DNA from: Ahaetulla prasina
Lineage: Eukaryota > Chordata > Lepidosauria > Squamata > Colubridae
NCBI RefSeq assembly: GCF_028640845.1
Contig: NC_080542.1
Span: 18,828,283 to 18,892,282, forward strand
DNA length: 64,000 nucleotides
Direction of reading: 5' to 3'
Position 1 is the stretch's first letter; the number at the start of each line of letters is the position of its first letter. The notes below the pieces were generated by a model that did no database searches, had not been told where the DNA came from, and was given only the letters and a program-made list of their open reading frames with translations. Made by a program: the position numbers and the translations under genes. Shown here in pieces: positions 4,378 to 38,548 of this stretch.

Positions 4378-4426
4378 TAGGTCTTGGCATATTCAGTCTT
4401 TTCCCGTGTAAGGTTGAGAGTATCTT

Positions 4427-4466
4427 GGTGACGTTTTGACGAGGTCTCACTCATCATCTTCAGGCT
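4427..4466 (-). ncRNA. Hammerhead-like motif, family C left arm
   Basis: Minus strand: CTGAAGA 4463-4457, T 4456, GATGAG 4455-4450 pairing fully with CTCGTC 4443-4438 (one G-U pair) around loop 4449-4444, then AAAAC 4437-4433 and GTC 4432-4430. The first G of GAAA is lost, which should inactivate a hammerhead. Confidence 0.5.
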
Positions 4467-4764
4467 GATGCTTTCGGCTTCGAACAAAGCGTGGTTGGAG
4501 CTGCCGTCTCTCTATAAATACTGATAGGGAGGTGGGGAGTGTTGCTGTGGGCAGGTTGGTTGGCTGTGTGGTTACATCTTGATTGGTAGATGGAGTGGGT
4601 ATGGGGACCCAATCTGCAAGCACCCACTCCATCTACCAATCAAGATGCAACCACACAACCAACCAACCCACTCACAGCAACACTCCCCACCTCCCCACCA
4701 GTATTTATAGAGAGATGGCAGCTCCGACCACGCTTTGCTCGCACAAACATGAAGCCAAAGCACC

Positions 4765-4803
4765 AGCCTGAAGATGATGAGTGAGACCTTGACGAAACGC
4801 CGC
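4765..4803 (+). ncRNA. Hammerhead-like motif, family C right arm
   Basis: CTGAAGA 4768-4774, unpaired T 4775, stem 4776-4781 with 4788-4793, loop TGAGAC 4782-4787, GAAAC 4794-4798. The triplet after it is GCC where GTC is expected. Stem II has one mismatch here but is complete in the left arm, so the two arms together show the ancestral pairing. Confidence 0.5.
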
Positions 4804-4890
4804 CAAGATACTCTCAACCTTACACGGGAAAAGACCCGAATATGCCAAGACCTACCTACCTATACCCGTGAAAACCTATGAAAACAAATA

Positions 4891-4896
4891 CATACA

Positions 4897-4951
<55 letters not shown>

Positions 4952-4962
4952 ATAGAGAGAGA
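4891..4962. repeat. (AC)n/(AT)n/(GA)n compound microsatellite
   Basis: Imperfect ACAC run followed by TATATA and GAGAGAGA. Confidence 0.9.
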
Positions 4963-5109
4963 GATCTTGCAATCAGATATATTAAGCCATTTTTGTTTTA
5001 ACTACAGTTTGTCGAACATGCCATAGCTTGTGTAGATCTATGAAACACAGGACATAAACTATATCCCCAGTTTCACACAGTGTGCTGAGACCAAATGAAA
5101 TTATAATAT

Positions 5110-5453
5110 TAGAATAGAATAACAGAGTTGGAAGGGACCTTGGTAGGGGTGAAATTGACTTACTTTCTTTACCAGCTTGGAAGTCCACACACCAGCCACG
5201 CACATCACATGCACGTGCAGACATTCTGCGCATGCGCAGAAGTTAAAAACACATTACTAACCTGGTTAAAACCAGGAAGTAATGACACCTGGGGGCGGTT
5301 GTCGCCAGTGGTTCAGCAATTGCTACAGGATCGCCAAACCACCAGCCACGATCGCTACCAGATCATGAGATGTGGTCAGAACCGGGAGCATTTCACCCCT
5401 GGACCTTGGAGGTCTTCAAGTCCAACCCCTTGCTTAGGCAGGAAACTCTATAC
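5110..5453 (-). mobile_element. CR1 LINE 3' end, interrupted
   Basis: The minus-strand CR1 terminus is seen at 5110-5143 (agaatagaataacagagttg on plus) and resumes at 5402-5453 (aggtcttcaagtccaacccc). A hAT MITE sits exactly between the parts. Confidence 0.8.
5144..5401 (+). mobile_element. hAT-type MITE inserted in CR1
   Basis: Ends TAGGGGTGAAAT and ATTTCACCCCTG. Perfect 8-bp TSD gaccttgg at 5136-5143 and 5402-5409; removing one TSD copy restores the CR1 3' end. About 258 bp, non-coding, same family as 35205 and 60432. Confidence 0.92.
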
Positions 5454-5601
5454 CAGGGATGTCAAACTCAATTTCATTGAGGACCGCATTAGGGTTGTGT
5501 TTGACCTCGGGAGTGGAGGTATGAGGCGTGGCCAGCTCAATGTCCATTTCCTATTGTGACGGCCTCCTGCAGCCCTCTGCCAGCGAAAACGGAGCAGGGA
5601 A

Positions 5602-8590
5602 TGAATGAATGAATGAATGAATGAATGAATGAATGAATGAATGAATGAATGAATATTTTAATTTGTATACCGCCCTTCTCCCGAAGGACTCAGGGCAGTG
5701 AACAGGCAGATAAAATACAAATATACACAATAATTAAAACAACCCTTAAAAAACTGATTTAAATTAGCCCAAGTATTAAAATAACTTACACCCCCATAAA
5801 ATTACAAAAATTTAAAAACCCATCAAATTCAATTAAAATCTAAAAATAAAAATCAAGCTAGTCCAGCCATACGAAATAAATAGGTTTTAAGTTCGCGGCG
5901 AAAGGTCCTAAGGTCAGGTAGTAATCGAAGTCCGAGGGGAAGTTCGTTCCACAGGGTCGGAGCCCCCACAGAGAAGGCCCTCCCCCTGGGGGCCGCCAGT
6001 CAACACTGTTTGGCTGACGGCACCCTGAGGAGTACCTCTCTGTGGGAACGCACCGGACGATGGGAGATAGAGGCCGGCAGTAGACGGTCCCGTAGATAGC
6101 CCGGTCCTAAGCCATGGAGCGCTTTAAAGGTGGTAACCAATACCTTGAAGCGCACCCGGAAAACAACAGGTAGCCAGTGCAGTCTGCGCAGCATGAGTGT
6201 TACGTGGGAGCTCCGAACCGCTCCCTCAATAACCCGCGCAGCCGCGTTCTGAACTAGCTGAAGTCTCCGGGTGCTCTTCAAGGGGAGCCCCATGTAGAGA
6301 GCATTGCAGTAGTCCAGGCGAGAGGTCACGAGAGCATGAGTGACTGTGCATAAGGCATCCCGGTCCAGGAAGGGACGCAACTGGCAGATCAGGCGAACCT
6401 GATAAAAAGCTCTCCTGGAGACGGTCACCAAATGATCTTCAAAGGACAACCGACCATCCAGGAGCACGCCCAAGTTGTGTACCTTCTCCATCGGGGCCAA
6501 TGACTCACCCCTGACAGACAGCCGCATCTGCAGCTGACTGTACCGAGGTGCCGGCATCCACAGCCACTCCGTCTTGGAGGGATTAAGTTTGAGCCTGTTC
6601 CTCCCCATCCAGACCTGTACGGCTTCCAAACACCGAGACAGCACTTCGACAGCTTCACTGGGGTGGCCCGGGGTGGAAAAGTACAGCTGAGTGTCATCAG
6701 CGTACAGTTGGTATCTCACCCCAAAGCCACTGATGATCTCACCCAGCGGCTTCATATAGATGTTGAACAGGAGGGGTGAGAGAATCGACCCCTGCGGCAC
6801 CCCACACATGAGGCACCTTGGAGTCGATCTCTGCCCCCCTGTCAACACCGTCTGCACCCGGTCAGAGAGGTAGGAGGAGAACCACCGATAAACGGTGCCT
6901 CCCACTCCTAACCCCTCCAACCGGCGCAGCAGGATACCATGGTCGATGGTATCAAAAGCCGCTGAGAGGTCTAATAGGACCAGGGCAGAGGAGTAACCCT
7001 TATCCCTGGCCCTCCAGAGATCATCCACCAGTGCGACCAAAGCTGTCTCCATACTGTATCCGGGCCAGAAGCCGGACTGGAACGGGTCTAGATAGACAGC
7101 TTCATCCAGGTACTGGGGTAGCTGACATGCCACCACACTCTCTACAACCTTCGCCGTGAAGCGAAGTTTGGAGACTGGCCGGTAATTCCCTAAAACAGCT
7201 GGGTCCAGGGAAGGCTTCTTGAGGAGGGGTCTCACCACCGCCTCTTTCAAGGCAGTGGGAAAGACCCCCTCCCGCAAAGAAGCATTTACAATCCCCTGGA
7301 GCCAGCCTTGTGTCACCTCCTGAGTAGCCAGTACTAACCAGGAGGGGCACGGATCCAGTAAACATGTAGTGGCATTCAGCCTACCCAGCAACCTGTCCAT
7401 GTCCTCGGGAGTCACAGGATCAAAATCATCCCAAATCACCTCAACAAGACGGGTCTCGGAACCCTCGCCTGGATCTACCCAATTTTGATCCAATCCGTCC
7501 CAAAGCTGAACGATTTTATCGTATAGATAACCGTTAAACTCCTCGGCAAGACCTTGTAGGGGGTCCTCCCGCCCCTCCTGTTGGAGGAGAGAGCGGGTCA
7601 CCCGAAACAGGGCGGCCGGGCGGTTATCTGCCGATGCAATGAGCGAGGAAACGTAGGAACGTTTCGCATCCCTCAGTGCCACTAGGTAGGTCCTGCTATA
7701 GGACCTAACTAGTGTCCGGTCAGCCTCAGAACGGCTGGATCTCCAGACACTCTCTAGGCATCTTCTCCGGCGTTTCATCTCCCTCAGCTTCTCGGAGAAC
7801 CAAGGAGCTGGTTGAGACCGACGCCGGGTCAGAGGCCGCAAAGGCACGACACGGTCCAAAGCTCCAGCCGCGGCCTGTTCCCAGGCCGCAACTAGTTCTT
7901 CAGTTGTGTCGTGGGCCAGGTGCTCGGGAAACGGCCCAAGCTCCGTCAGGAACCTCTCCGGGTCCATCAGGCGCCTGGGACGGAACCAGCGCATTGGTTC
8001 CATCTCCCTGCGGTGGTGGGTAGCGGTCAGAAAGTCTAGGCGGAGGAGAAAATGATCTGACCATGACAAAGATTCGACAACTAAATCATTTAAAATCAGA
8101 TCATTCAACCACTGGACAGAGATGAAAATCAAGTCTAGGGTGCCTCCCCCGACATGGGTAGGGCCGTCAATTAATTGAATCAGGTCCATGGCCGTTATGG
8201 AAGCCATGAACTCCTGAGCTGCCGAGGATGCTACGCCGGCTGATGGCAAATTGAAATCCCCCATGACTAACAGTCTAGGGGTTTCAACTGCCAACCCGGC
8301 CAGCAACTCCAACAGCTCAGGCAGGGCTGTTGTCACGCAGCAAGGAGCCAGGTACGTGATCAACAAGCCCACCTGAGTCCTACGACCCCACTTCACGTAG
8401 AGGGATTCACACCCAGCTATCTGAGGCACAGTGGTCTCCCTCGGCTCAAGACTCTCCTTAATAATAACCGCCACCCCGCCACCCCTACCCTGGGCCCTCG
8501 GCTGATGGAATGCTCGGAAAGGGGGGTACATATCCCTCCTGAGCTCCATTTTCGCTGCCAGAGGCACCATGGACCAGTGCTATTTCCAGG
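5602..8590 (-). mobile_element. L2-clade LINE, 5'-truncated, young
   Basis: The 3' end carries a (GAAT)n tail (5602-5652 on plus) next to the conserved 3' UTR stem ACCGCCCTGAGTCCTTCGGG. The coding frame above it is uninterrupted. Truncation falls inside the endonuclease domain. It lies within a hAT element that itself lies in CR1 sequence. Confidence 0.9.
6000..8570 (-). CDS. L2 LINE ORF2: endonuclease (partial) and reverse transcriptase
   Basis: An open frame of 856 codons without a stop. The N-terminal part is an apurinic-type endonuclease missing its start: GGGVAVIIKE near residue 30, LLVMGDFNLPS near 100 and the SDH motif (SWSDHFLL) near 170. The RT follows, with [31 protein letters not shown] and the catalytic YADDTQLY. 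The C-terminal region contains LDYCNALYMGLPL and LHWLPV, typical of L2-like LINEs. An intact L2 encodes the enzyme for target-primed reverse transcription. The first Met here is only the first one after truncation, not the native start. This copy cannot move on its own, but its clean frame implies recent insertion. Confidence 0.85.
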   Translation of the reverse strand: MVPLAAKMELRRDMYPPFRAFHQPRAQGRGGGVAVIIKESLEPRETTVPQIAGCESLYVKWGRRTQVGLLITYLAPCCVTTALPELLELLAGLAVETPRLLVMGDFNLPSAGVASSAAQEFMASITAMDLIQLIDGPTHVGGGTLDLIFISVQWLNDLILNDLVVESLSWSDHFLLRLDFLTATHHRREMEPMRWFRPRRLMDPERFLTELGPFPEHLAHDTTEELVAAWEQAAAGALDRVVPLRPLTRRRSQPAPWFSEKLREMKRRRRCLESVWRSSRSEADRTLVRSYSRTYLVALRDAKRSYVSSLIASADNRPAALFRVTRSLLQQEGREDPLQGLAEEFNGYLYDKIVQLWDGLDQNWVDPGEGSETRLVEVIWDDFDPVTPEDMDRLLGRLNATTCLLDPCPSWLVLATQEVTQGWLQGIVNASLREGVFPTALKEAVVRPLLKKPSLDPAVLGNYRPVSKLRFTAKVVESVVACQLPQYLDEAVYLDPFQSGFWPGYSMETALVALVDDLWRARDKGYSSALVLLDLSAAFDTIDHGILLRRLEGLGVGGTVYRWFSSYLSDRVQTVLTGGQRSTPRCLMCGVPQGSILSPLLFNIYMKPLGEIISGFGVRYQLYADDTQLYFSTPGHPSEAVEVLSRCLEAVQVWMGRNRLKLNPSKTEWLWMPAPRYSQLQMRLSVRGESLAPMEKVHNLGVLLDGRLSFEDHLVTVSRRAFYQVRLICQLRPFLDRDALCTVTHALVTSRLDYCNALYMGLPLKSTRRLQLVQNAAARVIEGAVRSSHVTLMLRRLHWLPVVFRVRFKVLVTTFKALHGLGPGYLRDRLLPASISHRPVRSHREVLLRVPSAKQC

Positions 8591-11131: not shown

Positions 11132-11268
11132 AGCACTTTAAAAAAAAAAGTTGGCAAGTTTAAAGTGTGTGGCCTTCAACTTCCAGAATTCCCCAGTCAG
11201 TAAGCTGGCTGGGGAATTCTGGGAGTTGAAGGCTACACATCATAAAGTTGCAAATTTGAAAAACACCG
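11132..11268 (+). mobile_element. Palindromic hAT-like MITE
   Basis: Hairpin arms ccttcaacttccagaattcc and gggaattctgggagttgaag meet around the short inner palindrome agtcagtaagctggct. The ends have decayed. Confidence 0.7.
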
Positions 11269-11666
11269 GTTTAAAGAAAAGATTGCCATTGATTGGGAAA
11301 TACGGGGCAGAGAATATCAACTATAACATCTAATTAAAAAGCGAAAACTGCCTCAGATTGTGCTTGGGTCTTGGTATTTGCATGGATACGTTCATATAAT
11401 TTTCTTGGGAACGCTTTAGTTGTTCTAACTGACTTTTTTCTCCCCCGTTTCCTAATCTAGCCAACATTTTTGGACTTTCTCATGGGGTTCCATCCAAGGG
11501 GCTAACCAGATTAGCTTCTGAAGCTCAAAGAGGGCCCATGGCTTGTTGAAGGTCATCAATATGAAGAACTTCAAGAGCCATGGATCTGAAGAACTTTGAA
11601 GGTAAGGATTTCTGTGGCTCAGAAATTTTACCCCCATGGATATTAAAAAAATACAATGCTTTAATC

Positions 11667-11732
11667 CAGGGGTCTCCAACCTTGGCAACTTTAAGCCTCC
11701 AGGCTTAAAGTTGCCAAGGTTGGAGACCCCTG
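11667..11732 (+). mobile_element. Minimal 66-bp palindromic hAT-like MITE
   Basis: Two perfect 32-base arms starting CAGGGGTCTCCAACC are separated by only CC. Perfect 8-bp TSD ctttaatc at 11659-11666 and 11733-11740. The CAGGGG end and 8-bp TSD place it in the hAT superfamily. Nothing but the terminal repeats remains. Confidence 0.95.
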
Positions 11733-11847
11733 CTTTAATCTAAAAGAGGGTACAATAGTCAGCAGGTGTTTGGAAACCTATCTGTTGCTTTCGCATGTTA
11801 GGTCAACCAGACCTTCATGTTAACTCATAAAATGATTGTTGGAGATT

Positions 11848-13825: not shown

Positions 13826-15315
13826 CAGGTTTGAAAGGAAACTACAGCCACCTATCTCCACAACACCCATCTCAGACACACCAACAACAGCCAAGCCTCC
13901 TATAATTGACCCCATTTCATTGGGTTCACAACCCCTAGTGATCACAGAAAAGGAAGTGCAGGACCTATTTCACAGACAAAAGCCAGGAAAAGCTCCAGGC
14001 CCAGACAAGATAACTCCTTCTTGCTTAAAAGTGTGTGCTGACCAATTGGCCCCCATCTTCACCCATATTTTCAATAAATCACTAGAGATGTGCTATGTTC
14101 CTTCTTGCTTCAAACGCTCTACCATCATCCCAGTGCTGAAGAAGCCCACCATCAAGGTACTGAATGACTACAGACCAGTTGCGTTAACATCTGTAGTCAT
14201 GAAAACCTTTGAAAGGCTAGTGCTTTCCTACCTGAAAACCATCACGGATCCGCTGTTAGACCCCTTGCAGTTTGCATACCGAGCAAATAGATCAACAGAT
14301 GATGCTGTTAATATGGCTCTGCACTACATCCTACAACATCTTGAGTCTCCAAAGACCTATGCAAGGGTCCTTTTTGTAGACTTCAGCTCAGCATTCAATA
14401 CTATCATTCCAGACATTCTTCTAACTAAGCTAAACCAGCTACAGGTACCGGAACAGACTTGTAAGTGGATCACAAGCTTCCTAACAAACAGGAAGCAGCA
14501 GGTGAAGCTAAGCAAGATCACATCAAATATCTGTACAATTAGCACAGGGCCCCCCCAAGGCTGTGTGCTCTCCCCACTTCTCTTCTCTCTGTATACCAAT
14601 GACTGCATCTCCAACGATCCATCTGTTAAACTACTGAAGTTTGCAGATGACACAACAGTGATTGGTCTCATTGGAAAAAATGACCAATCTGCATATAGAC
14701 GAGAGGTCGAACGACTAGACTTGTGGTGCGACCGAAACAATCTGGAATGAAACACACTCAAAACCGTAGAAATGGTGGTAGACTTTAAGAGAAACCCTTC
14801 CATACTTCCACCTCTCACAATACTGGACAACACAGTATCAACAGTAGAAACCTTTAAATTTCTAGGTTCTATCATATCACAAGATCTAAAATGGACAGCT
14901 AACATCAAAAACATCATCAAAAAAGGACAACAAAGAATGTTCTTTCTGCACCAACTCAGTAAGCTCAAACTGCCCAAGGAGCTGCTGATTCAATTTTACA
15001 GAGGAATTATTGAGTCTGTCATTTGTACCTCTATAACTGTCTGGTTCAGTTCTGCAACCCAACAAGAAAGATACAGACTTCAGAGGATAATTAGAACTGC
15101 AGAAAAAAAATTGCTACCAACCTGCCTTCCATTGAGGACCTGTATACTGCACGAATCAAGAAGAAGACCGTGAAAATATTTACAGATCCCTCACATCCAG
15201 GACATAAACTGTTTCAACTCCTACCCTCAAAACGACGCTATAGAGCACTGCACACCAGAACAACTAGACACAAGAACAGTTTTTTCCCAAAGGCCATCAC
15301 TCTGCTAAACAAATA
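13826..15315 (+). pseudogene. Rex1 reverse transcriptase with stop and frameshift
   Basis: Motifs in order: RQKPGKAPGPDKITPSCL, LNDYRPVALTSVVMKTFERL, LFVDFSSAFNTIIPD, PPQGCVLSPLLFSLYTND and LKFADDTTVIGL. An in-frame TGA sits at 14748-14750, after DRNNLE; the same frame resumes as NTLKTVEMVVDF. A second break, a frameshift near 15120-15135, precedes the conserved C-terminal part around FTDPSHPGHKLFQLLPSKRR. The enzyme is therefore inactive. The ADD catalytic residues are intact. Confidence 0.85.
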
Positions 15316-16943: not shown

Positions 16944-17025
16944 AGGGTCATTCTCAAGTCATCCAGGTCATGGTTGTCCCAGAGGTGCTTTCTTCCAAAG
17001 GGCAACTGGACCTTCTTGTTTTGCT

Positions 17026-17068
17026 GGAAGACATTTCGCTTCTTATATATAAGAAACTTCTTCAGTTC
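17026..17068 (-). ncRNA. Hammerhead-like motif, family B left arm
   Basis: Minus strand: CTGAAGA 17065-17059, then a longer helix GTTTCTTATATATAAGAAGC and GAAATGTC. The GAA/TTC helix I is kept. Spacing between the core halves is 21 rather than 19 bases. Confidence 0.4.
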
Positions 17069-17404
17069 TGACTGAATGGTGGAGAACAGAAGGATTTCCA
17101 GTATATTCTTTGCAGTCATGTGGTCACTAGCCCTCTTTCCTCAATGCCACTTGGAGGTTTATCTGTGCCCTCAGGTTCACCTGAATCCTGTAAATCTTCA
17201 TTTTGTTTTCTGGAAATCTTTTCATACAGGAGCATGCATACAGGAATATGAAAGGATTTGCAGAAAAACAACACAGACTACAGAATTCAGGTGACCCTGA
17301 GGGCACAGATAAACCTCCAAGTCACCTCAATGACTCTCAGAAAGAAGGCTAACGACCACATGACTGCAAGGAGTACAAATCTTTCCATTCTCTACCATTC
17401 AGTC

Positions 17405-17649
17405 CAGCGGTGGATTCACTTTTTGTACCACCAGTTCGCCGCCCCACCCCTTCACATGCTCACTTCACATGCGCCTTCCATGTATGTGCCCGACCTTCCA
17501 CGCATGCACTGCTTGCACACACGCTTTCTGCACATGTGCCTGGCTTCAAAAACGTGCCTAAATAGGACGGCATAGAGCCAGGGCGGGTGGGCAGGCCCAC
17601 CTGTGATTTCCGCTACGGATTCGCCCGAACCAGCTGAATACCACCTCTG
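17405..17649 (+). mobile_element. hAT-type MITE inserted in the foldback
   Basis: Ends CAGCGGTGGATTC and a closing TACCACCTCTG. Perfect 8-bp TSD attcagtc at 17397-17404 and 17650-17657. 245 bp, non-coding. Confidence 0.9.
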
Positions 17650-17655
17650 ATTCAG

Positions 17656-17700
17656 TCAGAACTGAAGAAGTTTATTGGAAAAGAAGTGAAACATCTTCTA
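17656..17700 (+). ncRNA. Hammerhead-like motif, family B right arm
   Basis: CTGAAGA 17662-17668, unpaired A 17669, stem 17670-17675 with 17682-17687, loop 17676-17681, GAAAC 17688-17692, then ATC. Helix I is GAA (17659-17661) with TTC (17696-17698), a compensatory change from GCA/TGC in family A. Confidence 0.5.
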
Positions 17701-17757
17701 GCAAAACAAGAAAGTCCAGTCGTCCTTTGAAAGAAAGCATCTTTGCGTCATAAAATG

Positions 17758-18778: not shown

Positions 18779-18779
18779 T

Positions 18780-21470: not shown

Positions 21471-21551
21471 TCTCGAGGCTAAGAGCGCCAGGAAAAGAGC
21501 TGAACTCACCAGGAAGACGCGAACCCAGCAAAACAAGGGCGGAAAGCAGCG

Positions 21552-22640
21552 ATGTCCGGCTACACACCGCCAGCGCCATTCGACCCAGCCAAAGAGAAAT
21601 GGGGGTCATACATGGCTCGCTTCGAGTGTTTCCTCGAAGCAAACGAACTTCAAGGGGTTTCCGACAACAGGAAACGAGCCTACTTTCTGAGCCACTGCGG
21701 TCCAGAAGTTTTCGACACCGCAGAATCCCTGGCTGAGCCAACGCCGGTACAGTCGGTACCGTGGCAAACTCTACAAACTCTGCTGAAAGCGCATTTCGCA
21801 CCGATGCCATCCAAGTATGTGCAACGGTTTGAATTCGGGGAGCGCAGACAGCAAGAAGGCGAGTCCATTAGTGCATACATGGCCGCCCTAAGAAAAGCCT
21901 CAAAACATTGCGAGTATCGAGACTTGGACGAGGCATTGCTGGAGCAACTCATCCGCGGGGTCAGGGACATCCGTTTGCGGAGGCGGCTGCTGGCTAAAAG
22001 CAACCTAACGCTGGCAAATGCCCTGGACGAAGCCAGGGCTCACGAGATGTCCACCCAAGCGGCAGAGACCTTACAAAAGCAGGTCACACCAACGGCTGGT
22101 GCGAAATCAACCCCGGTCTACAGTGAAGAGGTCCAGGCTGAATCGGAGGGGGAGGACGAGGAAGGAGTCTTCCACACCGGGAGGCCGGAGAAAGACGACC
22201 GGGGCGACTGCGCGAGTTGCGGAGGGCAACACCAACGACAACAATGCAGATTTAAAGATGCAACATGTCGGCGATGCGAAAGGAAGGGGCACCTAGCACA
22301 GGTCTGTCGAGCTCCCCAACCTTCCCGCCAAAAATTCAAACCAGCCAATCAGAGCGCGGGAACGACGAAGTGGCCCGCGAGTGGTCAGTTTAAAAAAGGC
22401 GCAAAATTAAACCAAACTGTCGTGAGAGTGGGTCACGCATCAACTCGCCTAGAAAAGAAAATCTTCACAAAAGCAAAAATTGAGGGGGTGCCGTGCCGAC
22501 TGGAGGTGGACACCGGCTCATCGATCACGATCATGTCCTGGGACAACCTCGTGAGAGCCTTACCCGTCATCGCAAAGCGCAAGCTGCAACCACAAAGACT
22601 AAAAGTACAGGACTACCAGGGGAATCGCATCCCTGTTTGA
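21552..22640 (+). CDS. Gypsy-1 Gag with nucleocapsid and start of protease
   Basis: The frame starts at ATG 21552, the first in the leader after the PBS, and has 362 codons. The Gag matrix/capsid-like part occupies residues 1-190 (WGSYMARFECFLEANELQG, FGERRQQEGESISAYMAAL). A CCHC zinc knuckle follows (CRRCERKGHLAQVC, CX2CX4HX4C) near residue 240. The retropepsin active site VDTGSSIT lies near residue 320 (DTG at 22509-22517). The frame ends at TGA 22638-22640, inside the protease fold and beyond DTG. The following pol is in the same frame with no other stop. The Gypsy-2 copy has CGA at this position, so the stop looks like a C-to-T change at a CpG rather than a designed readthrough site. Confidence 0.9.
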   Translation: MSGYTPPAPFDPAKEKWGSYMARFECFLEANELQGVSDNRKRAYFLSHCGPEVFDTAESLAEPTPVQSVPWQTLQTLLKAHFAPMPSKYVQRFEFGERRQQEGESISAYMAALRKASKHCEYRDLDEALLEQLIRGVRDIRLRRRLLAKSNLTLANALDEARAHEMSTQAAETLQKQVTPTAGAKSTPVYSEEVQAESEGEDEEGVFHTGRPEKDDRGDCASCGGQHQRQQCRFKDATCRRCERKGHLAQVCRAPQPSRQKFKPANQSAGTTKWPASGQFKKGAKLNQTVVRVGHASTRLEKKIFTKAKIEGVPCRLEVDTGSSITIMSWDNLVRALPVIAKRKLQPQRLKVQDYQGNRIPV

Positions 22641-25604
22641 GGGGTAACGTCCGTCCACGTCGAATATGGACACTACAAGAAAACTCTGCCCATCACCATC
22701 GTCGATGGGACCCTGCCAAGCTTGTTGGGACTGGACTGGTTCCGAGCATTGGGCATGGGAGTGACCGGAATCTTCAGAAACGAAGTCGACCTCAAAGACA
22801 CACTCACGAAGGAGTTTGGGGACGTTTTCAAAGACTGCCTGGGCAAGTACAAGGGGACCCCTATATCCTTTAACTTAGACCCCCAAGTTGCCCCTATCCG
22901 CCTAAAGGCTAGGAGGGTCCCGTTCGCCCTAAAGCCCAGGATTGACAGGGAACTGGACAAACTAGTAAACCAGGGAATTCTAGTGCCAGTTGACCATGCT
23001 AAGTGGGAGACCCCTATAGTCACCCCAGTCAAACCGGACGGATCGGTCCGGATTTGTGCTGACTACAAGGCAACACTTAACAAAGCGTTGCAAAAGAGTG
23101 CTTACCCCGTTCCGGTGGTACAGCACTTGCTGCACTCAATGGGGCAAGGGCAAGTTTTTGCCAAGCTAGACCTGGCCCAAGCCTATCAACAGCTGCCCAT
23201 AGACAGCAGCACAGCCGAAGCGCAGACAATCGTGACTCACAGAGGGGCGTTCAAGTGTACCCGATTGCAGTTTGGGGTCAGTGTAGCTCCAGGGTTATTT
23301 CAGAACCTGATGGAGCGGCTATTGCAGGGCCTCCCAGGGGTGGTACCATACTTTGACGATGTACTGGTATCCGCTGAAAATCTAGAGGAATTAGGGGTAA
23401 GGCTGCGAAAAGTTTTGGGAATTTTCCGGTCTGCCGGTCTCACGGTTAAACTAAGCAAATGCCAAATCGGGGTTGAGTCTGTGGAATTCCTGGGCTACCG
23501 GATAGACAGGGAAGGGATTCACCCCACTGAGAGCAAGGTACGGGCCATCAGGAAGGCCCCGGTTCCAAAAACCAAAACAGAGTTACAGGCATTCTTAGGT
23601 CTGGTCAACTTCTACGCAGTATTCTTAAAGAATAAGGCAACAGTAGCCAAGCCGCTGCATAAATTACTTGCAAAGTCGGCTGCATGGTCTTGGGGAAAGG
23701 CGGAAGCTAGGGCATTCGAAGGGGTAAAGAATCTCCTAACGAGTGATAGCCTCCTTATCCAATACAATGGCACGCTGCCATTAGTGTTAAGCTGCGATGC
23801 ATCTCCCTATGGGGTGGGGGCTGTGCTCAGCCACCGGTTACCAAATGGCACAGAAGCCCCTATTGCATACTACTCCCGAACCATGTCATCAACTGAAAGG
23901 AATTATAGCCAGCTTGATAAGGAAGCCTTGGCTATAGTCTCAGGGGTGAAGAAATTCCATGAGTATGTATTTGGTCGTGATTTTGAAATCATCACGGACC
24001 ATAGACCTTTGCTAGGTCTGCTGGCAGGCGACCGCCCAACGCCCGTGGCACTTTCGCCAAGACTGACCCGATGGACTATCTTCCTGGCAGCGTATTCTTA
24101 CAAATTGCTACACCGGCCAGGAAAGGAATTAGGGCATGCAGACGCACTGAGCAGATGCCCGTTACCAGAGACTATTGAAGACCCCACTCCGGGGATACCA
24201 GTTCTGCTAATTGACTCTTTGGACTCTGGCCCAGTCACATCCAAAGAGGTGGCTCGGGCTTCGTATAAGGACATTACAATAAGAACTGTAATTGGTTGGG
24301 TACAAAGAGGTTGGCCCGCTGCGCCGGGCGAGCGTTTTAAAGAGTTTGTAAAAAAACGTGGGGAACTCTCGGCTCAAGGGGGGTGCCTGCTATGGGGGGA
24401 TCGAGTGGTGATCCCAGAGAAATTGAGAAAAAAGGTATTGGATCTCCTTCACGAAGGTCACCCAGGGATCGTGAGGATGAAGGGTCTAGCGAGAAGCTAT
24501 GTGTGGTGGCCCTTAATGGACTCAGAAATTGCTGAGAGGGTAGGGAAATGTCAGGCCTGCCAGGAGTCCAGACCACTACCCCCAACGGCCCCGATTCGGG
24601 AATGGGAGAAACCCCAAGGGCCCTGGTCTAGGATCCACATCGATTTTGCCGGCCCCTTCCACGGCCAAACCTTTCTGGTGGTAGTCGATGCCTACTCCAA
24701 ATGGCTGGAAATCATTCTCATGAGATCCATGACAGCCGAGGCAGTGATCTCAGTCCTACGGCACCTATTTGTAACCCATGGGTTGCCCGACACGTTAGTA
24801 TCCGATAACGGCCCGCAATTCACGGCAACCCAGTTTGAGGGGTACTTGGCAGAAGAGGGCATCCGGCATGTCCTCTCGGCGCCTTTCCACCCTGCGACGA
24901 ATGGCCTTGCAGAACGTTCCGTCCGGAGCGCAAAAGAGGCATTGTCCAGAATCAAGCCAGGCGACTGGCAAACAAAAATCGATACCTTCCTGGCCGTCCA
25001 ACACAGAACCCCCTGTGTCACAACTGGCAGAAGCCCAGCAGAGTTATTAATGGGTCGGAAGCTCAGGTGCCCACTAGACCGTTTAAACCCGAACTACACA
25101 CCAGACGGTTACAAGGGGGCACTCGATAAAACAAGAGGGATGGCAATAGGCGACCGAGTGTGGGCACACAACTATAGCGAAGGCCCGACCTGGTTAGCAG
25201 GAAAAATCCTAGAAATAACAGGTCCCAAATCATATTTAGTGGAGATAAAGGATGGCCGGGTATGGAAGCGCCACATAGACCAAATAAGAAAACGCATAAC
25301 CGAACAACCCGAATTAGACGAAACAGGCCCTGACTATACAATGTTTGAATCCACAGCTGACTCAAACCCGGGGCAAACGCGGGACTTATCTGACTTCCAG
25401 GAGGTCCAGCGACGCCAACAGGTCCCGTCAGAAAACAGCAGGGACGACTCTGCAAATAATCCAGGGCCGGATGGCCTAGAAGAGGAGCTGAGAGGAACAG
25501 ACAGTCCCTCCGGTCAGCTCGACTCACTCCCAGAGAATGAATTGCGCAGGTCCGAAAGAGTCAGGAGACGCCCAGTCTACTTGCGTGATTACGTTGAAAA
25601 GTAA
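22641..25604 (+). CDS. Gypsy-1 Pol: protease end, RT, RNase H, integrase
   Basis: This continues the gag frame after the TGA, to TAA at 25602-25604. The RT contains VPVDHAKWETPIVTPVKPDG, FAKLDLAQAYQQLP and the catalytic YFDDVLV (about 23349). RNase H shows LSCDASPYGVGAVL, NYSQLDKEALAIV and IITDHRPL, with HADALSR. Integrase has an HHCC zinc-binding region (HEGHPG to CQACQ) and the catalytic triad in HIDFAGPF, VSDNGPQF and NGLAERSV. The C-terminal tail ends RRSERVRRRPVY. All catalytic residues are present. With the upstream stop, translation of Pol would need readthrough or supply in trans. Confidence 0.92.
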   Translation, partial: GVTSVHVEYGHYKKTLPITIVDGTLPSLLGLDWFRALGMGVTGIFRNEVDLKDTLTKEFGDVFKDCLGKYKGTPISFNLDPQVAPIRLKARRVPFALKPRIDRELDKLVNQGILVPVDHAKWETPIVTPVKPDGSVRICADYKATLNKALQKSAYPVPVVQHLLHSMGQGQVFAKLDLAQAYQQLPIDSSTAEAQTIVTHRGAFKCTRLQFGVSVAPGLFQNLMERLLQGLPGVVPYFDDVLVSAENLEELGVRLRKVLGIFRSAGLTVKLSKCQIGVESVEFLGYRIDREGIHPTESKVRAIRKAPVPKTKTELQAFLGLVNFYAVFLKNKATVAKPLHKLLAKSAAWSWGKAEARAFEGVKNLLTSDSLLIQYNGTLPLVLSCDASPYGVGAVLSHRLPNGTEAPIAYYSRTMSSTERNYSQLDKEALAIVSGVKKFHEYVFGRDFEIITDHRPLLGLLAGDRPTPVALSPRLTRWTIFLAAYSYKLLHRPGKELGHADALSRCPLPETIEDPTPGIPVLLIDSLDSGPVTSKEVARASYKDITIRTVIGWVQRGWPAAPGERFKEFVKKRGELSAQGGCLLWGDRVVIPEKLRKKVLDLLHEGHPGIVRMKGLARSYVWWPLMDSEIAERVGKCQACQESRPLPPTAPIREWEKPQGPWSRIHIDFAGPFHGQTFLVVVDAYSKWLEIILMRSMTAEAVISVLRHLFVTHGLPDTLVSDNGPQFTATQFEGYLAEEGIRHVLSAPFHPATNGLAERSVRSAKEALSRIKPGDWQTKIDTFLAVQHRTPCVTTGRSPAELLMGRKLRCPLDRLNPNYTPDGYKGALDKTRGMAIGDRVWAHNYSEGPTWLAGKILEITGPKSYLVEIKDGRVWKRHIDQIRKRITEQPELDETGPDYTMFESTADSNPGQTRDLSDFQEVQRRQQVPSENSRDDSANNPGPDGLEEELRGTDSPSGQLDSLPENELRRSERVRRRPVYLRDYVEK

Positions 25605-31966: not shown

Positions 31967-32875
31967 TTAGGTTTTGTGAATATTTTCTTCTCTAGGCGGG
32001 TCGCCGCACGACCCACTATTACGGTCGCTCGGTTTGACTTCGCGCCTTTTTCTTGACCAATCACGGGTCGCCTTGCCGATCCCGCCTGATTGGTTGGTTT
32101 GAATTTTCGGCGGAAGGTTGAGGTGCTCGACAAACTTGAGCCAGGTGCCCCTCTTCTCGCACCGCCGACATGTAGCGCCCTTGAACTTGCATTGATGACG
32201 CTGGTGTTGCCCTCCGCAACTTCCGCATTCATCCCGGTCTTCTTTCTCGGTCTCCGGTGTGAAAACTCCTTCCTCATCCTCGCCGCCTGATTTGGTCTGG
32301 ATTTCTTCGTTGTGGACCGGAGTTGATTTCGCCGCCGCTGGTGTGAGCGGCTTTTGTAGGGTTTCCGCCGCTTGGGTGGACATCTCATGAGCTCTGGCTT
32401 CGTCCAGAGCGCTTGCCAGCGTTAGGTTGCTTTTGATAGCAGCCGCCCGCAAACGAATGTCTCTGACCCCACGGATGAGTTGCTCCAACAGTTCCTCGTC
32501 CAAATCTCGGTACCCACAATATTTGGAGGCTTTCCTCAGGGCGGCCATGTAATCGCTGATGGACTCGTCCTCTTGCTGTCTGCGCTCTCCAAATTCAAAA
32601 CGCTGCACATATTTGGACGGTGTTGGCGCGAAATGGTTCTTCAATAGGTTCTGCAGAGTTTGCCACGATACCGATTGTACCGGCGTTGGCTCTGCCAGGG
32701 CTTCTGCGATGTCGATGACCTCGGGACCGCAGTGGCTCAGGAAATACGCCCTTTTTCTGTTGTCTGGAACTCCTTGCAGTTCGTTCGCCTCGAGGAAACT
32801 CTCGAAACAGGTCATGTATGTCCCCCATTTCTCCTTGGATGGGTCAAACGGCGCGGGCGGTGTGTAGCTGGCCAT
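31967..32875 (-). pseudogene. Gypsy-2 gag
   Basis: The frame starts at 32875 with MASYTPPAPFDPSKEKWG, close to Gypsy-1 Gag, and keeps FGERRQQEDESISDYMAAL and LLEQLIRGVRDIRL. The zinc knuckle begins (CRRCEKRG) but a frameshift just after it replaces the rest with unrelated residues. The true continuation, including the protease VDTGSAITIMSWD (about 31718-31951), is in another frame. Confidence 0.88.
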
Positions 32876-32973
32876 CGCTGCGTTCCGCCCTGAATTTTGC
32901 TGGGTTCGGTCCTCGTAGTGCGTTCAGCTCTTTCCTGGTGCTTTTAGCCTCGGGATCCCATCCTCGTCGCCAG

Positions 32974-33163: not shown

Positions 33164-33683
33164 CCACCCATGCCCCAGCTTGCAGAGGCAGTTCCAGCAG
33201 CCCTATCTGGAAAGACCCTGCGTGGCCACCAGCGCACTTCTTCTGCTTGCTCGTGGACACAATGGAGCAAGAGGCCAAGCGACACACCAGTGCCGTGACT
33301 ACAAGGCAATGCAAGGACTGGAGCTGCTCCACGCGCCACCGACTGGTTTACCTCAGGGCCTCCACAGACAGGCCATCCACATCCCGACACATGCCTCACC
33401 TTGCGGCCACAGCACTGACGCCAGCACACCACTCTGCCTCCTGCTCCATTCTGGCTGCGAGGAAACAGAAAAAGTGGGCCTGCAGCCACGTGGACTCCTG
33501 CTGCAGATGGCTGTTGAAGCTGCCGCCATGCATCAGGTGTTGGAGCATGGATGGCCTGGATGCGGAGGCCCTGAGGTAAGCCAGTGCGAGGTGCGTGAGG
33601 CGGCTCCACACACACATACACCTCGTGGCCACAGCACTGCAAGCAACCAGATGGAATGGGCAGCCGGGTGGCTGCACAGGCTC

Positions 33684-33685: not shown

Positions 33686-33780
<95 letters not shown>

Positions 33781-34584: not shown

Positions 34585-34745
34585 AGGAGCCAGTTTGGTC
34601 CAGTGGTTAAGACACAGCTAAGAAAATGGGAGGCCATGAGTTTTAATCTCACCTGAGCCAGGAAAGCCAGGTGGGAAATCTTGAGTCAATCATTCTCTCT
34701 CAGCTCAAGTCACCTCCAGGGTTGTTGTGAGGAAAATAAAGAGTA
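34585..34745 (+). mobile_element. tRNA-derived SINE
   Basis: gagccagtttggtccagtgg then ttaagac (A-box-like), a B-box-like gagttttaatctc, and caatcattctctctcagctc, agggttgttgtgaggaaaat. This resembles squamate tRNA-SINEs with a conserved core. No coding capacity. Confidence 0.65.
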
Positions 34746-35196
34746 AGGTATGTTGGATATATTCACCATCTGAGTTATTTGTAAAAATCATAAAGGTAAG
34801 ATTACAATAAATAAATGGAATTTTTCTATCTGATGTGGAAGGCAACAGTAAAACCCAATTAACTAAAATTAGTTTTGAGGATAAAAGTGGTGATTTAAAA
34901 AACACCATTATTTTTATATTATTACTATAAAGTCTTCCTTTTTTTTTGCACTATAAATCTCAAATAGTTTTTTCAGATTCTGTCTGAATTATTCAATTAT
35001 TATAACTTGTTCAATGAAAAGTCCCTCCTCTAAACAGACTGTTAAATCCAAATTAATAGCTAGGACACAAATGGAGCCAACCTTCAATTTAATGGGCTAA
35101 AATGGGAGCTGAGGGGTGTCCATTAAAGCAGAATGTCCACTAAACACAAATGGGATTTTATGTGTGTGCACAAGCGGCAGATGGGATTTTATACAC
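34746..35196. other. AT-rich intergenic DNA
   Basis: No gene or repeat recognised. Confidence 0.35.
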
Positions 35197-35204
35197 AGGC
35201 AAAC

Positions 35205-35463
35205 CAGGGGTGAAATCTACTTACCTTCCTTACCGGTTCGGAAGTGCACACGCTGCGCGCAGACCTTCTGCGCATGTGCAAAACCTTCTGCTCATGCACA
35301 GATGATAAAAAACACATTACTTCCTGGTTAAAATCAGGAAGTAATGACACCTGGGAAGATGGGCAGAGCTTTGTTCTGCCATCGGTACCAGATTGCCGAA
35401 CCACCAGCCATGATCGCTACCGGATCGCGAGAGCCGGTCAGAACCGGCAGCATTTCACTCCTG
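35205..35463 (+). mobile_element. hAT-type MITE
   Basis: Ends CAGGGGTGAAATC and ATTTCACTCCTG. Flanks aggcaaac and aagcaaac match at 7 of 8. It contains an inner ttacttcctggttaaaatca hairpin with its inverse partner, as do the copies at 5144 and 60432. Confidence 0.85.
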
Positions 35464-35471
35464 AAGCAAAC

Positions 35472-35933
35472 ACATTTTGAGCAAAAACAGATTTTGTCTA
35501 TCACCCATGTCTGTTAAATAACAAATCTGATGTCTGTTAAACTAAGCATTTATTGCACAGGAAAACAAGAAGGGTAACGAATACACAAATAGCCATAAAT
35601 ATATTTGTTGTCTAGAACTGAGAAAGTCCAAAGCTTCCATATTTTCATCTAAAAAGGGTTTATTCCCAAGCTGGATACCAGCCCCAACCATGAACCCTTA
35701 ACAATTTTTATCCTCCTCCTTTTCCCAGAAGCTAAATGAAAACTGGCAATTTCCATGTGTGTTGGGTTACAGCTCCCATCACCGAAGGAACAATTTGAAT
35801 TATTGTCCATTGGAGAAGGGAATTCTAGAAGAATTCAGGAAACAGTCATTTCCCGTGGAGAAGGGAGAGCACTAGAAATTTAGCAACTGTAGGAGGGGGA
35901 GTCTAAATTAAAAGGGGGGAAAAATTAGTCATA
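35472..35933. other. No recognisable gene or repeat
   Basis: Unclassified intergenic DNA. Confidence 0.35.
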
Positions 35934-36646
35934 TATAGTCCTCAACTTATGGCAGTTCAAAGTTACGGCGGACCTGAAAAAAGCTACTTATGACCTAGTT
36001 TTGAAATTCTGACATCTGCTCGCTCTCCCCACATACCCCTCGCAGTCAAGAGACTGCACTTTAGGGACTTTGTAATCATTTGCCATGCCCAGCAGTCATG
36101 TGACTGTGATGGACAACATTTTGGGGGAAGGAAAATCAGTGTTTAACTTCTATTTTCTGGCAAAAAATGCTCCATTTTGCTCCATTTTATGACCTCCCTT
36201 GCCACAGTTGCTAAGTGAATCACTGCAGTTAAAGGGCTAGAAGGGGTACAGAAAAGTAGTCTCAATTTACAACATTTCGTTTGAAGTTACAATGGCACTG
36301 AAAAGAGACTTGTGACTGTTTTTTCACACTTAACAACCACTGCAGCATCCCCATGGTCACGTGATCAAAATTTAGATGCTTGGCAATTGACTCGTATTTA
36401 TGACACTGGGTTGCAGTGTCCCTGGGTCACATGAACTCCTTTTGCGACCTTCTGACAAGCAAAGTCAAGGGGGAAGCCAGATTCGCTTAAAAACCACATT
36501 ACTTGCTTAACAATTGTAGTGATTCGCTTAACAATTGTGTCAAAAAAGGTCCTACAATGTGGCAGAACTCACTTAACAAATGTCTGGCTTAGCAACAGAA
36601 ATCTGGAGCTCAATTGTGGCCGCACGTCAAGGGCAACCTATACAAT
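35934..36646 (+). mobile_element. Two adjacent Tc1/mariner-type (Tigger-like) MITEs
   Basis: Both carry the family blocks agttcaaagttac, gcatccccatggtcacgtga, gaccttctgacaagcaaagt and cacttaacaa. The first copy (about 35934-36245) has a divergent centre; the second (about 36254-36646) is fuller. Complete relatives elsewhere in the window begin with CAGGTAGTCCT-like ends next to TA. Confidence 0.65.
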
Positions 36647-36835
36647 GGTGCCCTCCTCGCCCTCTCTGTAGCTCTACACAACTCTGTACATACAGTCTGG
36701 TCCCGCAACGTTGAAATCCTGAAGGGCATGGTAGGAAGTCTTCCTCCATGCAATCCTTGACATGTCCATGAGGAAGTCAAAGAAAAGTTTTAATAGAATA
36801 TGTGCAGCTTAGGTTGAACAACAGAGATGATGGTG

Positions 36836-36890
36836 TTGTCTACGAAAACATCTGCAAGCAAACAACCAAGCTCAGAGAGCACCAAGGACT
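36836..36890 (+). mobile_element. Foldback family A, half copy
   Basis: gatgatggtgttgtctacga, aaacatctgcaagcaaacaa, ccaagctcagagagcacc is one arm of family A with a decayed hammerhead-like core. Confidence 0.6.
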
Positions 36891-36941
36891 CTGCAGTCAA
36901 GAAAAGACCTCCCTGAAGACCCATCACCAAGCAATGTAGAC

Positions 36942-37044
36942 CAGGAGTCTCCAACCTTGGCAACTTTAAGACTTGTGGACTTCAATTCCCAGAATTCAAA
37001 TTGAAGTCCACAAGTCTTAAAGTTGCCAAGGTTGAAGACCTCTG
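36942..37044 (+). mobile_element. Palindromic hAT-like MITE
   Basis: CAGGAGTCTCCAACC to GGTTGAAGACCTCTG, a hairpin with centre agaattcaaatt. Flanks atgtagac and atatagac match at 7 of 8. Confidence 0.88.
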
Positions 37045-37732
37045 ATATAGACAACAAGAGTTAAATGATCTGCTCCCCTTTTCATGAACCTAACCCTCTC
37101 CAGGAGGACAGTCAAAGACGGTGACGCAAATTTAACTTGTCTAACAATTGTGTAGTAATTGTGACTTCCCCCAACTTTCCATTTTATTCGGGCAACTACA
37201 GCCTGACCTAGAGTGATGGGAGTTCTAGTCCTATGCATCTGGGAGACACCAGATTGGGGTAGATGGGTATAATAAGCTGGTTAAAACAGTCTATTTCCCA
37301 GATGCATTTTGATTTCAAACCAGCAAACATCAGGTCTTATGTAACCATATGCTGACGACAATCACACAATTGTTGAATGTTTCATCTCAGTCAGCTGTCC
37401 TCCCACCTTTGGTGAGGCAGCCAAATAAAGCTGATCATCCAGTCTCTTGATTTCTACTCCTTTAGCCATCAACCCATTTAATGTTCTTCTATCACCATGA
37501 CAACCAACCATGTACAATGACATGGCCGATTATTTTTTTTTTGGTTTGTTTATCATCTTCTTTCCACAACCAAAAAGGTTTACTAAAATCTCCACTATTT
37601 TAGTTAACTGGATACCAAGGAAACATTCTTTTCTGAGCTACCAGCTGCCCAAAGCAACCTGTTCTGGCCACAGGATGCAACTGTCCGTGCAACTGATAGG
37701 TCAACCACATTCTTCATTTTCAATGTTGCTTT
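37045..37732. other. No recognisable gene or repeat
   Basis: Unclassified, T-run near 37535. Confidence 0.35.
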
Positions 37733-38086
37733 AAAGGTAAAGGTTCCCCTCGCACATACGTGCTAGTAGTTCCCGACTCTAGGAGGTGGTGCTCATCTCC
37801 GTTTCAAAGCCGAAGAGCCAGCGCTGTCCGAAGACGTCTCCGTGGTCATGTGGCCGGCATGACTCAACGCCAAAGGCACACGGAACGCTGTTACCTTCCC
37901 ACCAAAGGTGGTCCCTATTTTTCTACTTGTGTTTTTTGCGTGCTTTCAAACTGCTAGGTTGGCAGAAGCTGGGACAAGTAACGGGAGCTCACCCCGTTAC
38001 ACTGCAGCACTAGGGATTCGAACCGCTGAATTGCCGACCTTTCAACCGATAAGCTCAGCGTCTTAGCCCGAGCCACCGTGTCCCCC
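37733..38086 (-). mobile_element. tRNA-derived SINE, about 350 bp
   Basis: On the minus strand: head gggacacggtggctcgggct, aagacgctgagc (box A region), ggttcgaatcccta (box B), then ggaccacctttggtgggaag and a 3' end gaggggaacctttaccttta. A sister copy is at 62879-63218 on the plus strand. Confidence 0.8.
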
Positions 38087-38215
38087 ACGGATTCCCTTGG
38101 CAATCAACACATCCTTCTCCTTGCGGTTAATTATCCCAGCCAAACCAAGGGACTCAATTTTATAACTCAGACAATGGATCTTTTGCTTTGGAGTGTTATC
38201 CTATTATGCTAAAAC

Positions 38216-38548
38216 TCTGTAGAGATTCTCAATCATCCAGGTCATGATTGTTCCAAAGGTGCTTTTTTCAGGAGGCAACTGGTCTTCCTTTTTTTTTTTT
38301 TTGGAAGACATTTTACTTCTCATCCAAGAAACTTCTTCAGTTCTGACTGGAATAGATGGATTTATATTCCTTGCAAACAGCTGTTCATTTGCATCCTTTT
38401 AGAGGGTTGTTGGGAGCAAAAGAATGCAGATTACAAGGAATATAAATCCTTCCACTCCCCACTATCCTGTCAGAGCTGAAGAAGCTTCTTGGCTGAGATG
38501 CAAAATGTCTTCAAAAGAAAAAAAGCAAGAAAAAGCACCTTTGGGATG
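38216..38548 (+). mobile_element. Foldback element, family B, short copy
   Basis: Left arm ccaaaggtgcttttt through cttcttcagttctgact is mirrored by ctgtcagagctgaagaagct through aaagcacctttggg. The centre near 38400 holds ccttgcaaacagc and the inverse attacaaggaatataaatcc. Confidence 0.7.
38473..38512 (+). ncRNA. Hammerhead-like motif, family B short copy, right arm
   Basis: CTGAAGA 38476-38482, A 38483, stem GCTTCT (38484-38489) with AGATGC (38496-38501), loop TGGCTG, then AAAA in place of GAAA, and GTC 38507-38509. The left arm (38304-38343, minus) has the same G-to-A loss. The structure is kept but the catalytic G is missing. Confidence 0.4.

What the first reader, a model, noticed from the sequence alone, without database searches (positions are those of the whole stretch)
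4378..38548. Three foldback families share the same 19-base ribozyme-core architecture with covarying stems
Family A (1.1 kb), C (4.4-4.8 kb) and B (17 kb, 38.3 kb) all read CTGANGA, one unpaired base, 6-bp stem, 6-base loop, 6-bp stem, GAAA (19 bases between core halves in nearly all arms). Stem II sequences differ (GTTAC-type, GATGAG/CTCGTC, GCTTCT/AGAAGC-type) but pair in each. Helix I also changes in pairs: GCA/TGC in A, GAA/TTC in B. Different sequence with the same pairing argues for selected RNA structure.
Basis: partly seen in the sequence, partly recalled or inferred. Interest (0 to 1): 0.85.

Follow-up and report, generated by a model that had tools for sequence, protein, structure and literature searches.

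The report
Ribozyme-bearing Penelope retrotransposon end pairs
The foldbacks are decayed, head-to-head pairs of end pieces that look like those of Penelope-type jumping genes, each carrying a tiny self-cutting-RNA (hammerhead) motif; the kind is known, but this animal genome holds over twenty thousand such motifs, and the paired ends give a testable clue to how such elements insert.

Summary
Eleven arms in the window carry CTGANGA - one base - stem II - GAAA-NGTC with up to 3 bp of helix I; 10 of 11 have the 19-base spacing. Eight meet a strict descriptor against 0.11 per dinucleotide shuffle. Genome-wide there are 22,561 exact cores against 27 for the reversed pattern. Pairing changes compensate between families A, B and C in the window and in 33 of 34 outside copies found by sequence alone. 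That is about three lineages, not many events. Within A and B, copies pair no better than independent columns predict, and most A copies listed carry a fixed mismatch. Only C shows compensation of its own (21 of 21 stems paired, 5 distinct sequences).

The foldbacks are not part of the ribozyme. They match inverted Penelope pseudo-LTR pairs: neighbours within 1 kb are divergent 32 times, convergent 3; of 17 pairs scored, 13 carry a 'tail' on one arm, 4 on none, 0 on both. Published Penelope anatomy is the same (PMC3846280, PMC11167929). The Penelope ORF was not found. New families of a known kind; 5 of 11 window cores are intact.

The parts
1030..1264 (.). Foldback A1: head-to-head pair of family-A end pieces; tail (about 1030-1060) on the left arm only; outer limits by eye
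1103..1142 (-). Hammerhead-type core A1L (core letters intact)
1184..1223 (+). Hammerhead-type core A1R (intact); ATG at 1193-1195 overlaps A9/extra base/G10.1
4377..4890 (.). Foldback C: pair of family-C end pieces; tail on the right arm only (about 4865-4890)
4427..4466 (-). Core CL (G12 changed to A)
4765..4804 (+). Core CR (U16.1 changed to C)
16945..17745 (.). Foldback B17: pair of family-B end pieces; tail on the left arm only; an unrelated insert lies at about 17405-17645 between the arms
17027..17068 (-). Core B17L (intact, spacing 21)
17659..17698 (+). Core B17R (core letters intact; 15.2/16.2 unpaired)
38213..38530 (.). Foldback B38: pair of family-B end pieces; tail on the left arm only
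38304..38343 (-). Core B38L (G12 changed to A)
38473..38512 (+). Core B38R (G12 changed to A)
41077..41149 (+). Single family-A arm with intact core A3R (41078-41117)
45970..46165 (.). Foldback A2 (not in the finding): cores -46043..46082 and +46106..46145, both damaged; tail on the left arm only

Best explanation
The foldbacks are short insertions of three families of Penelope-like retroelements (PLEs). Each arm is the 3' part of a pseudo-LTR (pLTR) that ends a short distance downstream of a minimal type I hammerhead ribozyme. Shown here: the ribozyme core (CUGANGA, stem II, GAAA, a loopless A-U/C-G stem III, cleavage triplet GUC, 3-bp helix I); compensatory differences between families; outward-facing arms; and a tail on one arm of most pairs. 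Inferred: (1) in the source elements the ribozyme sits at the pLTR/ORF junction; in A and C an ATG overlaps A9-N-G10.1, which would account for the extra unpaired base, although B has AAG there. (2) It cuts tandem transcripts, probably as a dimer, because the self-complementary ACGU of two copies could form the stem III that one copy lacks, or with help from the PLE protein. (3) The inverted pair arises at insertion: the enzyme primes reverse transcription on both strands of the target, each cDNA starting downstream of the ribozyme, and the truncated 5' ends of the two cDNAs are joined. The window copies then decay. The confidence below is for the identity (Penelope-type pLTR pairs with a minimal hammerhead); for step 3 alone I would say about 0.4.
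For: Core and spacing. Genome count 22,561 against 27. Compensation between families; within C, 21 of 21 stems paired with A-T to G-C (2 copies) and C-G to T-A (1 copy). Divergent 9 / convergent 0 (window plus 200 kb), 8/0 (29 loci from the A search), 15/3 (first 100 exact C copies). One tail in 13 of 17 pairs, none in 4, two in 0. Direct neighbours: 13, 19 and 4. Papers: PMC11167929 (main text section read in full): Anolis Poseidon PLE with an HHR of stems I and II, ORF beginning at the start of stem II, C3 and G8 before it, reverse transcription starting 111-118 bp into the ORF, a 30-40 bp tail between two start sites, both target strands cut and extended. PMC3846280 (passages and the Discussion): inverted pLTRs, head-to-head the most frequent, 31-bp tail optional at one of them. 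[quoted passage not shown]
Against: No PLE ORF was linked. The GIY-YIG search scored 150 of 3022 candidates and gave one match, whose translation looks like the host nuclease SLX1 (my recognition). The RT search scored 150 of 107,841 candidates and listed none in the 2.1-kb C array; that array could not be read. No Rfam family matched the window at gathering score, and no hammerhead family matched two short A stretches at E up to 10. Most listed A copies have a broken stem II pair. Longest shared words of outer flanks (5-8 bases in 14 of the 17 pairs) lie within swapped-flank controls (4-9), so no target-site duplication was seen. Three convergent C pairs exist. A protein search with the C N-terminus found nothing. 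In PMC11167929 ribozyme mutants did not affect insertion in vitro.
Confidence: 0.87

Rival explanations
1. They are foldback DNA transposons or MITEs whose terminal inverted repeats happen to contain a hammerhead-like string.
For: Short inverted repeats around a small centre; the window has many other palindromic repeats of that kind.
Against: The two ends are unequal, one with a tail and one without, in 13 of 17 pairs. Single arms and direct arrays of the same piece are common. Centres of B17 and B38 differ by eye. No duplication was seen at the flanks. A MITE model gives no reason for compensatory stems.
Confidence: 0.05
2. Family A direct arrays (core-to-core mostly about 100-215 bp) are retrozyme-like: small non-autonomous elements that multiply as ribozyme-cut RNA circles and are copied by another element's enzyme.
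For: Direct arrays of 3-5 A cores, for example L162 with a period of 117-121 bp and L122; animal retrozymes are tandem repeats of about 150-450 bp with type I HHRs (PMC7229834, passages).
Against: Many units are shorter than the published range and joined by CCT-rich stretches of variable length (by eye). The same A piece also occurs as inverted pairs with a Penelope-type tail. Most listed A copies have a broken stem II pair. Circles cannot be tested here.
Confidence: 0.12
3. The inverted pairs are made by self-priming of one cDNA on an antisense template, as proposed for rotifer Penelope, not by priming on both target strands. (This competes with step 3 only.)
For: Published model for head-to-head PLE pairs with palindromic junctions (PMC3846280 Discussion). 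One arm being a shorter copy of the other also gives one tail per pair.
Against: The Anolis enzyme extends both strands in vitro (PMC11167929). The A1, C, B17 and B38 junctions hold unpaired centres of 33, 21, 86 and 44 bases, not tight hairpins.
Confidence: 0.35
4. The string is a plain hairpin or a coding relic (KRLQ/KRRQ N-terminus), not a ribozyme.
For: In A the letters GATG and CGTC can pair with each other, giving one long hairpin; the frame from ATG is open over the 35-40 codons read in the A1 and C arms and in A3R.
Against: N7 is T in A but mostly A in B and A in C, which breaks that pairing, as a hammerhead allows. The compensating columns are those of helices I and II. In B the frame starts AAG and hits a stop at the fifth codon in both B38 arms, yet the core string is recognisable there.
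Confidence: 0.05

Closest known systems
Poseidon from Anolis carolinensis (PAc) and its hammerhead ribozyme (PMC11167929)
   Same: HHR described with stems I and II and loop II; ORF beginning at the start of stem II with C3 and G8 before it; cut just inside the ORF; insertion ends at start sites downstream of the ribozyme, with a 30-40 bp tail between two of them.
   Different: Its letters were not available here, so homology was not tested. ORF not found here. Ends here lie, by eye, about 70-80 and 105-110 bases after A9 (PAc 111-118 for the main site). B has no ATG at that place.
Minimal type I hammerheads of Penelope-like elements (Cervera and de la Pena 2014; Lunse, Weinberg and Breaker 2017; both papers not held, seen as citations and through passages of PMC7761336 and PMC6466107)
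   Same: No helix III letters beyond the conserved ones (GAAAC-GUC without loop), thousands of dispersed copies, pLTR setting in some.
   Different: Their consensus, and whether it has the extra base after A9, could not be compared.
Penelope families of the rotifer Adineta vaga (PMC3846280)
   Same: Inverted pLTRs, mostly head-to-head, about 31-bp tail on one of the two, pLTR includes the first codons of the ORF.
   Different: The word hammerhead does not occur in that text; TSDs of 8-10 bp are reported for some copies there and not seen here.
Animal non-LTR retrozymes with type I HHRs (PMC7229834, passages)
   Same: Type I HHR, direct arrays, weak helix III in amphibians acting as dimers.
   Different: Canonical loops with tertiary contacts and units of about 170-400 nt; no inverted tail-bearing pairs in the passages read.

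Membership tests
Minimal type I hammerhead of Penelope-like elements | Conserved core CUGANGA ... GAAA with U16.1 and H17 | tested here: met
   5 of 11 window cores and 14 of 33 sampled cores keep all; 22,561 exact cores in the genome
Minimal type I hammerhead of Penelope-like elements | Helices I and II with compensatory changes | tested here: met
   Between families and, in stem II, within C; not within A or B
Minimal type I hammerhead of Penelope-like elements | Helix III without extra letters (loopless A-U, C-G) | tested here: met
   GAAACGUC; A-U kept in 10 of 11 and 31 of 33 copies; the second pair stands in 10 of 11 and 21 of 33
Minimal type I hammerhead of Penelope-like elements | Self-cleavage, as dimer or with protein | not testable with these tools
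   Needs RNA
Penelope-like retroelement | pLTRs, direct or inverted (head-to-head), in tandem or partial tandem | tested here: met
   32 divergent, 3 convergent; direct arrays
Penelope-like retroelement | Optional 30-40 bp tail at one outer end | tested here: met
   13 of 17 pairs with one, 4 with none, 0 with two; tail length by eye
Penelope-like retroelement | ORF with telomerase-like RT and GIY-YIG endonuclease beside the pLTR | tested here: inconclusive
   Not found; searches scored only 150 of 3022 and 150 of 107,841 candidates; array not readable
Penelope-like retroelement | Target-site duplication, variable | tested here: inconclusive
   No excess over swapped flanks in 14 of 17 pairs tested, with crude flank limits
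Rfam hammerhead families | Match to an Rfam hammerhead model | tested here: not met
   0 at gathering score in the window; none at E up to 10 in two A stretches; B and C were not tried at that laxity
Foldback DNA transposon / MITE | Equal terminal inverted repeats flanked by a TSD | tested here: not met
   Ends unequal in 13 of 17; no TSD excess
Non-LTR retrozyme | Ribozyme-cut circular RNA of unit length | not testable with these tools
   No RNA data

The most novel reading that the evidence does not exclude
Inverted Penelope pairs are the direct product of two-sided target-primed reverse transcription with a fixed asymmetry: one strand's cDNA starts at the distal site and keeps the tail, the other's starts at the proximal site, just past the ribozyme. 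A pair would then never have two tails (0 of 17 here; chance of that given 13 tails among 34 ends is 0.021, a test chosen after seeing the data). The proximal site would mark a step used on one strand only, which might tie hammerhead processing to insertion and explain why divergent pairs prevail.
Probability: 0.25. Interest if true: 0.65.

Novelty: new member of a known kind. Interest (0 to 1): 0.4.

Why it matters
The role of the hammerhead in Penelope-like elements is called unknown in a review whose passages I read (PMC7761336), and the way these elements insert is only now being worked out (PMC11167929). One animal genome with 8,616 identical copies of one 34-base core, and pairs whose ends can be read, makes both testable: which arm has the tail, whether the two arms come from one RNA or two, and whether end sites bear on the ribozyme. 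It also cautions that covariation counted over thousands of copies may reflect only a few ancestral lineages.

Tried and rejected
Plain-hairpin reading of A: rejected because N7 breaks it in B and C. Rfam hits over the A1 foldback at E up to 10 (mostly microRNA families, some snoRNA): rejected as the effect of a long inverted repeat, all below their gathering scores. A weaker model hit at 37301-37336 (E 0.013): no core by eye, dropped, as was 14133-14171 (E 0.79). RT frames in the window as the missing PLE ORF: 10 of the 131 frames were scanned; those with RT look like LINE or gypsy-type frames. Scans of IMG/VR with A- and B-type strings gave 0 loci. Spacing controls N18 and N20 in the genome did not complete.

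Dropped or limited counts: one search used 34 of the 36 hits (left out: L132 45-75 and L122 7197-7248). One of the 34 outside hits (L135, 41 bases) was left out of alignment A4; L122:7209-7248:+, which overlaps a hit on the other strand and is probably false, was kept there. L141 is the window's own place and was not used. One search sorts each core to the nearest of three strings, so a fourth family would be forced into one. The 100 places listed are the first on contig C1, not a random sample; one search's list overlaps the sample and the C list, so its 5 divergent / 1 convergent / 22 direct was not added to the total. Tail strings were taken from arms of the set itself (the C string equals the C right arm and the B string nearly equals B38-left), and the best-match null was drawn from the A loci, true tails included; none was run for B or C. 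B17-left counts as tailed at 6 mismatches of 24. In several pairs one side is a direct array, so the arm scored is the innermost, not the outermost (L126, L143, L167 without tail; L134, L156, L164 with). The 15 divergent C pairs were not scored for tails.


Full report
WHAT IS THERE. The window lies in a genome of 1.77 Gb in 745 contigs, at C4:18828283-18892282. Its repeats look squamate-like to me (recalled, not tested). Each reads helix I (up to 3 bp) - CTGANGA - one base - stem II (6 bp) - loop - stem II - GAAA - NGTC - helix I, with scattered losses. Ten of eleven have 19 bases between the core halves; B17-left has 21. With spacing 19, the core and at least 5 of 6 stem II pairs required, the window has 8 hits against a mean of 0.11 in 200 dinucleotide shuffles. 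Looser controls are far weaker: 12 against 5.1 without the stem, and 8 against 5 in the reversed window for a free-spacing score of 12 or more.

GENOME SCALE. The exact core CTGANGA-N19-GAAACGTC occurs 22,561 times (11,354 + 11,207) against 27 for the reversed pattern. One 34-base version, family C, occurs 8,616 times exactly, control 0. The first 100 listed cores are nearest to family A (59), B (20) or C (21). A 200-kb sample from contig C1 gave 36 hits with the window's structure model at E up to 1, of which I counted 34, and 34 outside the window with a model of sequence alone at E up to 0.1.

IS IT A HAMMERHEAD? Read as a type I hammerhead, CUGANGA is C3-A9, GAAA is G12-A15.1 and CGUC gives C15.2, G16.2, U16.1 and C17. 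Helix III is therefore A-U and C-G with no loop, which fits 'minimal' type I hammerheads (PMC7761336, passages). A single copy could hardly close helix III. Two copies could, because ACGU is self-complementary; this is inference, in line with the dimer action stated for Penelope hammerheads (passages; title). There is one extra base between A9 and stem II. A viroid hammerhead with an extra core nucleotide is cited in PMC6155905 (title only). This base is T in 47 of 59 A and 21 of 21 C cores listed, and A in 20 of 20 B cores; in A and C it mostly gives ATG across A9-N-G10.1. [quoted passage not shown] No Rfam hammerhead model matched.

COVARIATION, FOR AND AGAINST. On 11 window cores, 87.6% of cells pair (70.7% shuffled) and 21 cells changed on both sides (6.9 shuffled); slides of 1-3 columns drop pairing to 28-57%. 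On 33 of 34 outside copies found by sequence alone, 77.4% pair (67.1% shuffled) and 45 cells changed on both sides (18.1 shuffled); slides give 32-52%. One measure is weak in both: pairs with any change on both sides, 6 against 4.1 (36 of 500 shuffles) and 7 against 6.4 (235 of 500). The tool's own note applies: related sequences can exceed every shuffle. The signal lies between families. Within A (27 copies) and B (14 copies) the number of paired cells is close to that expected from independent columns. In the listed cores, A has all six pairs in 2 of 59 and at least five in 33 of 59, because 52 of 59 carry T-C at the third pair; B has at least five in 18 of 20; C has six in 21 of 21 (5 distinct sequences), with A-T to G-C in two and C-G to T-A in one. 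So the structure was kept while the source elements diverged, and C kept it recently; A and B copies show no sign of selection on the stem. G12 is lost in CL, B38L, B38R and A2R, which CpG decay could explain where a C precedes it (my inference).

WHY FOLDBACKS. All five window pairs are divergent: each core points outward with its downstream flank outermost. Neighbouring cores within 1 kb: window plus 200 kb, 9 divergent, 0 convergent, 13 direct; 29 loci from the A search, 8, 0 and 19; first 100 exact C copies, 15, 3 and 4. The total is 32 divergent and 3 convergent; for the 17 to 0 of the first two sets p = 1.5e-5. By eye the arms end at two places downstream of the core, some 35 bases apart. 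Among the 17 divergent pairs carry the longer end (tail) on one arm, 4 on neither, 0 on both (limits of this scoring are in Tried and rejected). Centres of B17 and B38 differ by eye. Published Penelope anatomy is the same: inverted pLTRs, head-to-head the most frequent, with a 31-bp tail optional at one of them (PMC3846280), and a 30-40 bp tail lying between two reverse-transcription start sites in Anolis Poseidon, whose protein cuts and extends both target strands (PMC11167929).

MECHANISM. Most likely, source elements transcribe tandem copies; the ribozyme at the pLTR/ORF junction can cut them, as a dimer or with protein help; the protein cuts the target and primes on both strands, each cDNA starting downstream of the ribozyme; the truncated cDNAs join, leaving an outward-facing pair. 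Shown here: anatomy, orientation, ends. Shown by others in vitro: internal start, two-strand extension, protein-assisted ribozyme activity (PMC11167929; there ribozyme mutants did not affect insertion, and no RNA-seq reads began or ended at the ribozyme site). Inferred: joining of the two cDNAs. The published alternative is self-priming on an antisense template (PMC3846280), which these data do not exclude. Within one foldback transcript the sense core would pair with its antisense copy: predicted folds put 30-38 of 40 core bases in the opposite arm's core. A foldback is therefore a poor ribozyme gene and a likely source of double-stranded RNA.

WHAT IS NOT SHOWN. No PLE ORF was linked to any family. 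The GIY-YIG search returned one match, which by its translation looks like SLX1 (my recognition). The RT search was swamped: 150 of 107,841 candidates scored, none listed in the 2.1-kb C array. That array could not be read. No target duplications stood out (14 of 17 pairs tested). The two papers that define minimal Penelope hammerheads are not held (the id tried was a guess), so their consensus was not compared. I make no claim that such hammerheads in squamates are undescribed: paper searches cover only the open library.

VERDICT. A real and well-made observation; new families of a known kind. Its best use is as material for testing how Penelope elements insert.

Noticed in passing
window 3812-3924, 11148-11257, 11661-11738, 36937-37049, 43691-43804, 54004-54112, 55067-55201, 56004-56099, 61176-61291: Another palindromic repeat family (GTTGCCAAGGTTG... 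/ ...GGAGTTGAAGTCC type); arms 1-11 bases apart in seven of nine, 34 and 58 in two; no hit of the core model there.
   Followed up: no
window 6000-8579 (-): 859-codon open frame with reverse transcriptase and endonuclease domains, LINE-like.
   Followed up: partly
window 21504-25604 (+): Gypsy-type frames: weak gag match followed by a 987-codon RT / RNase H / integrase frame; described only.
   Followed up: partly
window 31967-32923 (-): Gag-like frame.
   Followed up: no
window 38853-39779 (-): 308-codon open frame with C2H2 zinc fingers, close to foldback B38.
   Followed up: no
window 36846-36889 (+): Family-A downstream flank preceded by a different, decayed core-like stretch; maybe a further subfamily.
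   Followed up: partly
window 57739-58255, 33319-33608, 40844-41012: Other long inverted repeats of unknown family.
   Followed up: no
G000:C1:10376741-10383178 (-): Four exact C cores in direct order, 2.12-2.15 kb apart: candidate for a longer Penelope unit.
   Followed up: partly
L115, L055 (IMG/VR contigs): Viral-collection contigs with core matches whose stem II is the strong GTCCGTGAGATTCGGAC; probably ordinary hammerheads of another kind.
   Followed up: no
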